The notes under the pieces were generated by a model, which saw only the letters and a list, made by a program, of their open reading frames with translations, was not told the origin of the DNA and ran no database searches. The translations under genes were made by a program, and so were the position numbers. A stretch of 16,686 nucleotides of DNA from Lachnospiraceae bacterium (GTDB taxonomy: Bacteria; Bacillota_A; Clostridia; Lachnospirales; Lachnospiraceae), in NCBI GenBank assembly GCA_017516285.1, contig JAFXDD010000021.1:1-16686 (forward strand), in the 5' to 3' direction. Shown piece by piece: positions 9,131-16,686 of the stretch. Each line of letters starts with the position of its first letter. Position 1 is the stretch's first letter.

Positions 9131-9958
9131 TTAGTGTTCAAAACCGATTATCAAGCCGCCTGCTTCTGCATAAAAGCTGCATAACCCAAAAGTCTTGGCA
9201 ATAATAATCTTAGCATTTGGAAATTCTTCCAGAAGAGCCTGCTTTAACTTCTGAGCTGTACTCTCATTGTAACAGTGGTCAATAATAACCTGCTTGCCTT
9301 TGTAACCGGCCTTTTTCATATTGTTTACCAGACAGGCAATAGCCTTTTTTTCACCACGAACCTTGTCAGTAGGATTTAAAACCCCGCCTGTGGCATCACC
9401 AATCACGCGAATGCCCAACATACCTGCAATGGCAGCTACCGCAGGATTTACACGACCGTTATTTGCAAGATTCCTCATGCTTTCCAGACAAAACTGCAGA
9501 GATGTATTCTTTTTATATTCTATAAGCTCCTTACAGATAGACTCAAAATCCTTACCTGCCTTGACAAGTTCCTTCACCTTATTGATATGAAGCTTCATCT
9601 CCGGACCTGTAGAACGACTGTCAAAAACAAAAACCTTTCTGCCGGGATGCTCTTCTTCATATTGTTCCTTGGCTGTCATGGCTGCATTGTAGCTTCCTGA
9701 CAATTCACTGGTAATGGTAGAGCAATATATCTCTTCAGCATCTCCAAATGCCTCCAACCATTCACCTACACCCGGACATGCTGTACGAGAGCGCCCTTTA
9801 TAGCTTGACAAATCATCTACCATCTGACGCACATCCAGCTGAGCGTCATCTCTGTAATCCTTTACGTCCGTAGAAATGATTAAGGGTGCTGCCTGATAAT
9901 CTATACCTTCTAATTCATGCATATTTGCGGATGAATCTGCTACAATTTTAACCTTCAT
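9131..9958 (-). CDS. DegV family protein, divergent copy (putative fatty-acid binding)
   Basis: 275 residues, full length for DegV. DegV (FakB-like) proteins bind a fatty acid and, with a FakA kinase, pass acyl-phosphate to phospholipid synthesis. Family features seen: VADSSANM (6-13), a TACP version of the T-S-x-P loop (59-62), ELSGSYNAA in place of SGTY (85-93), and NGRV (168-171) with the following helical segment. At the C-terminus, where most members have G-S-H-T-G-P-G, this protein has CSFYAEAGG (260-268), so the ligand-binding His is absent. It may bind another ligand or bind without phosphate transfer. No fakA is in the window. Start has AGGAAGG about 8 nt upstream. Own promoter with a dyad just downstream of the start; terminator follows. 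Confidence 0.88.
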   Translation of the reverse strand: MKVKIVADSSANMHELEGIDYQAAPLIISTDVKDYRDDAQLDVRQMVDDLSSYKGRSRTACPGVGEWLEAFGDAEEIYCSTITSELSGSYNAAMTAKEQYEEEHPGRKVFVFDSRSTGPEMKLHINKVKELVKAGKDFESICKELIEYKKNTSLQFCLESMRNLANNGRVNPAVAAIAGMLGIRVIGDATGGVLNPTDKVRGEKKAIACLVNNMKKAGYKGKQVIIDHCYNESTAQKLKQALLEEFPNAKIIIAKTFGLCSFYAEAGGLIIGFEH

Positions 9959-14523: not shown

Positions 14524-15225
14524 TTACCATTCTATTTCGGAAATCGGTGTCGGATTGGCATTGGTTTTCATTTCAATCACCTTACCGCTCTTAAAACGTA
14601 TCAGTCTGTCCGCCATAGGGGCCAGGGCTGAATTATGCGTAATCAACAATACTGTAATGCCATCCTTACGGCAGGTATCCTGCAACAACTGCAAAATCTG
14701 TTTGCCCGTATTGTAGTCCAACGCTCCGGTGGGCTCATCACACAAAAGCAGCTTAGGGTTTTTGGCCAAAGCTCTGGCAATCGACACACGCTGTTGCTCA
14801 CCGCCGGAAAGCTGTGCCGGGAAATTCCCTTTTCTTTCTGATAACCCCACCTTATCCAAAGTCTCAGAAGCATCCAGATATTCTTCACAAACCTGAGCTG
14901 CCAACTCCACATTTTCTAAAGCCGTCAGATTCGGCACCAGATTATAAAACTGAAAAACAAAACCAATGTCCGTACGTCGATACCCCACCAGCTGCTTATT
15001 ATTATATGCAGTAATATCCTGTCCATCCACAATAACCTGCCCGCTGGTGGCTCTATCCATGCCGCCTAAAATATTAAGGGCCGTGGTCTTGCCGGCACCG
15101 GAAGAACCAAGTATCACCGCAAGCTCCCCCTTTTCCACCAAAAAGCTGGCATCATTCAGAGCCCTTATAACCGTCTCACCGGCCACATATTCCTTTATTA
15201 TATGATTAAATTCTATATAAGCCAT
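14524..15225 (-). CDS. ABC transporter ATP-binding protein, LolD/MacB type
   Basis: 233 residues. Complete nucleotide-binding domain: Walker A GSSGAGKT (40-47), Q-loop [16 protein letters not shown] (Gln92), ABC signature [15 protein letters not shown] from 139, Walker [13 protein letters not shown] (159-170) and H-loop His197. The EPTGALD form and ENV after the Q-loop are typical of the LolD/MacB/FtsE branch that partners FtsX-type permeases, matching the next gene. Cytoplasmic; powers the permease. The frame is open to a TTG at 15243, but I chose the ATG at 15225 because GAGGAG ends 6 nt before it and MAYIEF is a normal opening for this family. First gene of the operon; divergent from the second degV. 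Confidence 0.95.
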
Positions 15226-15231
15226 ACCATT

Positions 15232-15237
15232 CTCCTC
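15232..15237 (-). promoter_or_regulatory. Ribosome binding site that fixes the ATPase start
   Basis: GAGGAG on the minus strand, 6 nt before the ATG at 15225. It would lie inside the coding region if the upstream TTG at 15243 were used, which argues for the ATG. Confidence 0.75.
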
Positions 15238-15269
15238 ACACAAACCACGCAGTACATGTTTATTATATT

Positions 15270-15494: not shown

Positions 15495-16379
15495 ATGGAA
15501 AATTTTATTCTCAGCAGCTGCTCTACAGCAGATTTATCTAAAGAGCATTTTGAACAACGTAATATTCACTATATTTGCTTTCATTACGAATTAGATGGTG
15601 TGTCCTACCAGGATGACCTTGGACAGTCCATGTCTTTTGAGGACTTTTATGTTGCCATGCAAAATGGTGCTGACACCAAGACTTCACAGGTAAACGCCGG
15701 CGAATTTGAAGAATATTTTGAACCCTTTTTACGAGATGGTAAAGATGTTTTACACGTATGCCTGTCTTCCGGTATTTCAGGTACATACAATTCTGCAAAT
15801 ATTGCCAGAGATACCCTCATGGAAAAATATCCTGACAGGAAAATTTACATCGTAGACTCTCTCGGAGCCTCCTCCGGTTTTGGATTATTAGTAGATAAGC
15901 TGGCAGATTTACGTGATGCCGGCAAGAATATCGACGAAGTATATGAATGGGCAATAGAAAATCGCTTAAAGGTTCAGACCTGGTTCTTCAGCACAGACCT
16001 AACCTTCTACGTTAAGGGCGGCAGAGTCAGCAAGACCTCCGGCTTTGTAGGCAACTTATTAAACATCTGCCCTCTGTTAAACATGGACGGTGAAGGCAAA
16101 TTAATTCCCCGCCAGAAAATCAGAACCAAACGTAAAGTAATCCAGGCCATTGTTGAGCAAATGGAGCAATACGCTGAAAATGGCTTTGACTACAACGACA
16201 AATGCTATATCAGCCACTCTGCATGCCCGGAAGATGCTAAAACCGTAGCCACTATGATTGAAGAACGCTTTCCGAAGCTAAATGGCAAAGTGTTAATCAA
16301 TGACATTGGTACCACCATCGGCAGCCATACCGGACCAGGTACCGTGGCGCTCTTCTTCTGGGGCGCAACGCGCGACTAA
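15495..16379 (+). CDS. DegV family protein, canonical copy (FakB-like fatty-acid binding)
   Basis: 294 residues, usual DegV length. Expected to carry a fatty acid for phosphorylation by a FakA-type kinase and entry into phospholipid synthesis; the kinase is not in the window. Seen: TSQVN (63-67), the loop SSGISGTYNSA (91-101), GGRVSKTSGFVGNLLNICPLL (basic Arg177 and following helix), and the C-terminal head-group motif GSHTGPGT (276-283) with His278, which the other copy lacks. Start has AGGAG 5 nt before the ATG. Promoter and dyad just upstream; divergent from the ABC operon. The stop codon TAA overlaps the first base pairs of the 267-bp palindrome, and no simple terminator with a T-run follows. 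Confidence 0.93.
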   Translation: MENFILSSCSTADLSKEHFEQRNIHYICFHYELDGVSYQDDLGQSMSFEDFYVAMQNGADTKTSQVNAGEFEEYFEPFLRDGKDVLHVCLSSGISGTYNSANIARDTLMEKYPDRKIYIVDSLGASSGFGLLVDKLADLRDAGKNIDEVYEWAIENRLKVQTWFFSTDLTFYVKGGRVSKTSGFVGNLLNICPLLNMDGEGKLIPRQKIRTKRKVIQAIVEQMEQYAENGFDYNDKCYISHSACPEDAKTVATMIEERFPKLNGKVLINDIGTTIGSHTGPGTVALFFWGATRD

Positions 16380-16644
16380 ATTCCGGTTTGTGGGGGCGAC
16401 GAATAATTGCTCCCTCTCGTCAAATCTATGTTTTGCTAAGGACAGCTATATAAGTTCTTTTAGAACCCGCTCTCGCTCAGTGAAAGGCTGCAGCGGTACT
16501 AAGTTCAGCTGCGGTGTAAACACCTTGCTTCACTAAGGACCGGCTCCTTTCAATGGTTCTATAAGTACTTATATAGCTGTCCTTAGCATTACACAGTAAA
16601 TACCATAGGGAGCAATTATTCTGTCCTACTACAAAACGGAATTT
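16378..16644. repeat. 267-bp imperfect palindromic element (MITE-like or structured RNA)
   Basis: The outer arms 16378-16467 and 16555-16644 (90 nt each) align as an inverted repeat with no gap. Perfect paired blocks are 16378-16385 with 16637-16644 (AAATTCCG), 16401-16415 with 16607-16621 (15 bp), 16434-16455 with 16567-16588 (22 bp) and 16461-16467 with 16555-16561 (TAGAACC). The centre pairs further: TGAAAGG (16481-16487) with 16546-16552, CGGT (16494-16497) with 16539-16542, and GGTG/CACC (16513-16516 with 16521-16524) at the tip. TAAGGAC or its complement occurs four times (16437, 16534, 16579, 16673). No transposase is encoded; an open frame through it (to 16536) is a by-product. The 16645-16686 remainder holds only a small TAGC/GCTA dyad. 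Confidence 0.85.
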
Positions 16645-16686
16645 GCCACCACACTACAAAAATAGCAAGCTAGTCCTTATTGAAAA

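What the first reader, a model, noticed from the sequence alone, without database searches (positions are those of the whole stretch)
16378..16644. Long near-symmetrical palindrome starting in the stop codon of degV
The sequence shows two 90-nt arms that pair in register with no gap, including perfect runs of 22, 15, 8 and 7 bp separated by mismatched internal loops, and a centre that folds on down to a GGTG/CACC tip. The pattern of conserved paired blocks with variable internal loops is far beyond chance and much larger than a terminator. Known analogues are MITEs and enterobacterial ERIC-type palindromes; a structured non-coding RNA is the other option. The arms differ by many substitutions, so either the pair has aged or pairing is kept only in the blocks that matter. 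The AAATTCCG end overlaps the degV TAA, so insertion may have supplied the stop codon. I have a vague impression of related repeats in other Lachnospiraceae but cannot confirm it.
Basis: partly seen in the sequence, partly recalled or inferred. Interest (0 to 1): 0.75.

Follow-up and report, generated by a model that had tools for sequence, protein, structure and literature searches.

The report
Mobile DNA palindrome family in Lachnospiraceae
The long hairpin after degV is one copy of a family of short, apparently mobile DNA palindromes scattered through many gut-bacterial genomes, with a conserved folded tip and arms that change in step so that they keep pairing.

Summary
The palindrome is real: arms 16378-16467 and 16555-16644 match at 70 of 90 positions, with perfect runs of 22, 15, 8 and 7; fold z-score -11.1. 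Its centre (16457-16562) is a conserved ~100-nt core. A covariance model of that core matches in 163 of 397 genomes of the family of the closest relative, and in 5 to 131 copies per genome in six genomes scored more deeply. No Rfam match. Copies lie in mostly unrelated gene contexts and come and go between sister species: of seven sites checked, four lack it in one sister and two look like gains. So it behaves as small mobile DNA. Outside the core, each lineage has its own long arms, which differ between copies yet stay largely Watson-Crick paired, sometimes with matching indels on both sides. The arms show no excess of G·U over A·C mismatches (88 vs 78), which points to DNA-level upkeep rather than an RNA. 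I read it as a non-autonomous REP/MITE-like element moved in trans by an unidentified enzyme that recognises the folded core. Y1 and IS110-type transposases do not track copy number. Insertion supplying the degV stop is not supported.

The parts
16378..16644 (+). whole palindromic element (outer limits set by the arms; exact mobile ends unknown because no second copy with these arms was found)
   Evidence: inverted repeat, fold
16378..16467 (+). left arm, copy-specific sequence
   Evidence: 70 of 90 positions pair with the right arm
16555..16644 (+). right arm
16457..16562 (+). conserved core, match to covariance model R1
   Evidence: 85.5 bits, E 6e-19 (the window copy is one of the 24 rows the model was built from)
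16469..16476 (+). GCTCTCGC motif, unpaired or tiny hairpin on the 5' side of the core
   Evidence: invariant and nearly invariant columns of A1
16490..16503 (+). GCAGCGGTACTAAG, 5' strand of the conserved inner stem with an AG bulge
   Evidence: invariant and nearly invariant columns, covarying pairs
16533..16544 (+). CTAAGGACCGGC, 3' strand of the conserved inner stem
16513..16524 (+). GGTGTAAACACC hairpin tip, variable part of the family
   Evidence: variable columns
15495..16379 (+). degV gene, ends at about its native length; the element follows its stop codon

Best explanation
This is one copy of a family of short (about 180-270 bp), non-coding, non-autonomous mobile DNA palindromes of the Lachnospiraceae group. 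Shown: a ~100-nt core with conserved single-stranded motifs and covarying stems is shared across many genomes; many copies per genome; presence/absence between sister species. Shown: arms are lineage- or copy-specific and stay largely Watson-Crick paired. Inferred: a transposase-like enzyme acting in trans recognises the folded core (and short subfamily-specific ends) and inserts the unit between genes, with no clear target duplication. Inferred: the arms are kept complementary by copying one arm from the other at DNA level (template switching within the hairpin, or synthesis of the second arm during a hairpin-intermediate transposition), not by selection for an RNA.
For: Family: 163 of 397 genomes; copies 131, 46, 45, 42, 15 and 5 in six genomes. 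Structure: 95.1% of cells paired, 24 of 26 pairs changed on both sides, covariation 0.563 vs 0.202 shuffled and at most 0.123 slid (alignment fitted to the model); the unfitted A1 shows 19 of 26 pairs with compensatory change. Contexts: in 83 loci the only gene group recurring in more than three loci is one that looks like ABC ATPases (9 loci, largest 40 groups printed; groups that are readings of the palindrome itself not counted). Mobility: of 7 sites in G092, four lack the element in one sister (10-27 nt between the flanks instead of 194); two more are full in G788 while more distant genomes have 16-41 nt and no core. Arms: G208 (9 copies, core 2.2% different) and G092 (8 copies, 2.3%) have arms changed at 6.4% and 14.5% of columns; G274 (16 copies, core 11%) has 761 compensated against 179 other arm differences (pairwise counts, not independent). 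Matching indels on both arms in 3 of 17 G274 copies. DNA level: G·U 88 vs A·C 78 in 97 copies.
Against: No mobilising enzyme found: Y1_Tnp in 12 of 20 high-copy vs 16 of 21 low/zero-copy genomes, Transposase_20 in 9 of 20 vs 12 of 21. Exact ends and target duplication not defined. One core pair (columns 51-167 of A2) is T·G in 29 of 77 rows and never A·C, and over all core pairs G·U exceeds A·C (58 vs 29, p 0.002; without two pairs 18 vs 29): one strand of the core may matter in folded form, RNA included. In G092 uncompensated arm changes outnumber compensated ones (62 vs 34). The G208 and G092 copies were chosen from the top-scoring rows, many with equal scores, so the closeness of their cores is partly selection by me. 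Four sites of G092 keep only remnants in G789, so part of the presence/absence is loss. None of the 57 degV relatives has a core beside degV (the one other match lies about 4 kb away in L026), but none is close enough to show this site just before insertion.
Confidence: 0.72

Rival explanations
1. Structured RNA element (3'-UTR stabiliser, processing site or small RNA) maintained by selection on the transcript.
For: Strong covariation of the core; a strand-specific T·G wobble at one core pair and an overall G·U excess in the core; in a family-wide set of 79 rows (4 of them duplicates) the gene on the 5' side reads into the element in 57, away in 16, unknown in 6 (crude ORF calls).
Against: Arms show no G·U over A·C excess (88 vs 78); inner stems nearly free of wobble (690 Watson-Crick, 5 G·U, 4 A·C, 54 transversion mismatches in the 48 of 95 copies that a strict pattern parsed); in G274 the orientation bias is absent (8 with, 14 against); no common gene; high, variable copy number.
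Confidence: 0.15
2. REP/REPIN element of a RAYT (Y1 transposase) system.
For: Palindromes between genes, many copies, often in inverted pairs (9 of 12 loci with two matches, one of the nine with a weak partial second match), no clear target duplication; compensatory changes are reported for REPINs (PMC3116915, passages).
Against: 8 of 20 high-copy genomes have no Y1_Tnp match and low-copy genomes have it at least as often. The conserved part is the apex, not the two ends, and the unit is several times longer than a REP.
Confidence: 0.08
3. Arms are host sequence: the core lands and fold-back synthesis duplicates the flank in inverted orientation, or it lands in the loop of an existing palindrome.
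For: Arms differ between copies yet pair; two of four empty sites have short AT-rich inverted repeats around the insertion point (read by eye); several relatives of degV have a hairpin with a T run where the window has the element (by eye).
Against: At the empty sites of L277, L281 and L282 I see neither arm sequence (by eye); arms of copies in one genome are recognisably related.
Confidence: 0.05

Closest known systems
REPIN (REP doublet) / RAYT systems
   Same: Short, extragenic, many copies, hairpin-forming, non-autonomous, paired changes in the stem (PMC3116915, passages).
   Different: REPINs have conserved ends and a variable middle with a Y1 transposase; here the apex is conserved, arms vary, and Y1 transposase is not associated with copy number.
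MITEs, ERIC/IRU and RU elements of enterobacteria
   Same: Roughly 100-270 bp palindromes between genes, present or absent between relatives (ERIC recalled; RU size and MITE likeness from the search listing of PMC2759123).
   Different: MITEs are defined by terminal inverted repeats of a known transposase and target duplication; neither is shown here. The core is conserved across lineages while the ends are not.
Quasipalindromes corrected by template switching
   Same: Arms made alike by copying from one another (abstract starts of PMC7202029 and PMC8604942 in the listings).
   Different: There a mutation process at single loci; here it would act on a whole dispersed family.
Palindromic candidate structured RNAs of human microbiomes (PMC8040213)
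   Same: 250 of 3161 candidates are palindromic; the authors say 20 may be REP or another class (passages).

Membership tests
REP/REPIN-RAYT | cognate Y1 transposase (RAYT) in the genome | tested here: not met
   PF01797 in 12 of 20 high-copy and 16 of 21 low/zero-copy genomes
REP/REPIN-RAYT | conserved REP at both ends, variable spacer | tested here: not met
   the part conserved across genomes is the apex
MITE | terminal inverted repeats | tested here: inconclusive
   inverted arms reach close to the limit of similarity between copies, but in G274 conserved unpaired bases (GGAC, TGTGTATCG) lie outside them
MITE | target-site duplication | tested here: inconclusive
   no clear duplication at four empty sites; TGT at both junctions of one
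MITE | ends shared with an autonomous transposon | not tested
   no search for arms flanking a transposase was made; only Y1 and IS110-type families were profiled
Rfam structured RNA | match to a curated family | tested here: not met
   none over the element at gathering (two tRNAs elsewhere); in five member loci at E<=1 only three below-threshold miRNA matches outside the element
intrinsic terminator | GC stem followed by a T run | tested here: not met
   no terminator-like site reported in 16380-16686 (that scan counts only loops of 3-8)
ERIC/IRU | ERIC consensus sequence | not tested
   considered from memory only
integron attC | R/L core boxes at the ends and an integrase | not tested
   considered from memory only

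The most novel reading that the evidence does not exclude
A new kind of mobile palindrome in which the folded apex is the recognised engine and both arms are rewritten together: each transposition passes through a single hairpin strand whose second arm is synthesised by copying the first from the core's 3' end. The family would then carry its own palindrome-correcting cycle, explaining closely similar cores with different, well-paired arms and matching indels.
Probability: 0.25. Interest if true: 0.8.

Novelty: new variant of a known kind. Interest (0 to 1): 0.6.

Why it matters
It adds a common repeat family to abundant gut bacteria for which I found no description (searches named in the report). 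The contrast of conserved core and co-changing arms gives a natural test bed for how bacteria create, correct and tolerate long palindromes, and the missing enzyme is a concrete target. The copies could also mislead RNA-structure surveys, since their covariation is strong without an RNA function being shown.

Tried and rejected
Fold-back duplication of flanking host DNA: attractive while arms looked unique; rejected at three empty sites where I see neither arm (by eye). RAYT partner: not supported by profile. IS110-type partner: not supported by profile. Partner gene beside copies: none stood out. 3'-UTR orientation rule: 57 vs 16 family-wide but 8 vs 14 in G274, so not general. Phage carriage: one exact core pattern in none of the IMG/VR contigs; blastn of the window element found nothing in phage or plasmid records. 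First empty-site attempt in the genus of G274 was too diverged for exact junctions. Literature: searches listed no description of this element; preprints are not held and most subscription papers are missing.

Rows dropped or repeated: A1 used 24 of the 26 cores (L081, same as L080, and the divergent L075 left out); L069, with an interrupted core, was also left out. One search has 79 rows, 4 of them duplicates (all in the majority class), and 21 distinct copies from two genomes (G057, G336). One search used 97 of 101 rows (the 4 duplicates skipped). One search parsed 48 of 95. One search used 16 of the 24 G274 copies of L067 and L210-L217 (second subfamily, an interrupted core and two divergent copies left out). 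Copies of G208 and G092 were picked from the top of the list.

Full report
WHAT IS THERE. The inverted repeat at 16378-16644 is as described: 70 of 90 positions of the arms match, in runs of 22, 15, 8, 7 and shorter, z -11.1 for the fold. It lies directly after degV. In the 27 of 57 degV relatives printed the protein ends within a few residues of the same FFWG motif or a variant, so the stop codon is at its native place. Several of those relatives have a hairpin with a T run after degV (by eye); the scan reports no terminator-like site after degV in the window.

A FAMILY, DEFINED BY ITS CENTRE. The closest degV among 57 relatives found in genome contigs is 79% identical, in a Tyzzerella sp. 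MAG (L055 = G001); no genome is held for the window itself. A DNA search with the element against 397 genomes of that family gave 33 with a match at E<=0.01. The best ones matched not the whole arms but the centre, around query 88-129. Of the 22 loci shown, 21 have a match to the core model built later; L070 does not, nor do L076, L082 and L085, so those weak matches look like chance. Twenty-four cores were aligned (A1): a GCTCTCGC-type motif, GCGGTACTAA and TTAGTNCCGG are nearly invariant, with 26 consensus pairs, 19 with compensatory change. The covariance model R1 matches in 163 of 397 genomes of the family at E<=0.01 (at most ten candidates scored per genome) and in 9 of 391 genomes of the class at E<=1e-5. 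Six of those nine were already in the family sample; whether the other three (G584, G625, G746) belong to the family is not told. Scoring up to 150 candidates per genome gives 131, 46, 45, 42, 15 and 5 copies in six genomes. Among 57 degV loci plus the window only the window and one site in L026, about 4 kb from its degV, have a core. Rfam has nothing for it.

STRUCTURE STATISTICS. On 85 model-aligned cores (77 distinct), 95.1% of cells pair, 24 of 26 pairs change on both sides, covariation 0.563 against 0.202 for shuffles and at most 0.123 for slid versions. This alignment is fitted to the model, so it leans towards the structure; A1, made by MAFFT without it, points the same way.

ARMS. Within one genome copies share subfamily arms (G057; G274; G208 and G092), but between genomes of different lineages the arms look unrelated while the core is not. 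In G274 arms of 36 nt are perfectly or nearly perfectly paired in several copies with different sequences. Counted over pairs of copies, which are not independent, compensated differences are 761 against 179 others in 16 copies of G274, 37 against 24 in 9 copies of G208, and 34 against 62 in 8 copies of G092; G092 goes the other way, mostly in its distal arms. Cores differ by 11% in G274, 2.2% in G208 and 2.3% in G092; the last two sets were picked from top-scoring, often equal-scoring rows, which favours similar cores. Three of 17 G274 copies have the same indel on both arms. At an orthologous site in four species the arms differ by paired changes (by eye). There the core is 93 of 94 identical in G406 and G405 (5' flank 52 and 49 of 54) and 81 of 94 in G403 (5' flank 42 of 54, 3' side 49 of 84), so somewhat better conserved than its flanks.

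DNA OR RNA. If one strand's RNA were selected, G·U should be tolerated and A·C not. In the arms of 97 copies: 4403 Watson-Crick, 88 G·U, 78 A·C (p 0.48), 288 transversion mismatches, 357 in loop-like stretches set aside. In the core: 1829, 58, 29 and 69; G·U exceeds A·C overall (p 0.002), but the excess comes from two pairs (29 and 11 cells); without them 18 against 29. I conclude that arm pairing is kept at DNA level, while one strand of the core may be read in folded form. That natural RNAs use more wobble pairs is from general knowledge; no control family was run.

MOBILITY. In 83 loci the only gene group recurring in more than three loci looks like ABC ATPases (9 loci, one of them the window's ORF 14524-15243; by resemblance, not searched); one further group is shared by L080, L081 and L094, and the rest printed look like duplicate loci or readings of the palindrome itself. 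For seven G092 sites with flanks searched in five congeners: G789 lacks the element at L277 and L279 (10 nt between flanks), G788 lacks it at L281 (25) and L282 (27); G788 has it at L278, L280 and L283. Outgroup loci at L280 (35-41 nt, three genomes) and L283 (16 nt, one genome) have no core, so these two look like gains. G789 keeps remnants at L278, L280, L281 and L283; at L283 the arms remain and the core is deleted, as palindrome decay would give. At L277 the outgroups have 139-191 nt without a core, so direction is unresolved there; G788 was not resolved at L277 and L279, nor G789 at L282. No clear target duplication.

MECHANISM. Best reading: non-autonomous mobile palindrome, recognised through its folded core, arms kept complementary by arm-to-arm copying. 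Template switching that homogenises inverted-repeat arms is documented (abstract starts of PMC7202029 and PMC8604942 as listed). REPINs show compensatory stem changes too, but with conserved ends and a RAYT (PMC3116915, passages). Y1-type and IS110-type transposases do not track copy number. The mobilising enzyme is the main gap.

NOVELTY. I found no description: Rfam and paper searches are negative; PMC8040213 lists palindromic candidates without naming this one in the passages seen, and PMC2267715 has no occurrence of 'lachnospir'. It is a new family and, by its layout (conserved apex, varying paired arms), a variant of the REP/MITE kind.

Noticed in passing
   Followed up: partly
   Followed up: no
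L091, L114, L087, L067, L065, L102, L109, L095: Copies often lie in inverted pairs (+ then -), about 60 to 1300 bp apart; L084, L121 and L136 have direct pairs.
   Followed up: no
   Followed up: no
L213:4191-4416: A 225-bp AT-rich insertion with internal repeats, absent in sister genomes, with no match to the core model.
   Followed up: partly
window 9131-9958 (-): A second degV-like gene (275 aa) about 6 kb from the one beside the element (family by resemblance, not searched).
   Followed up: no
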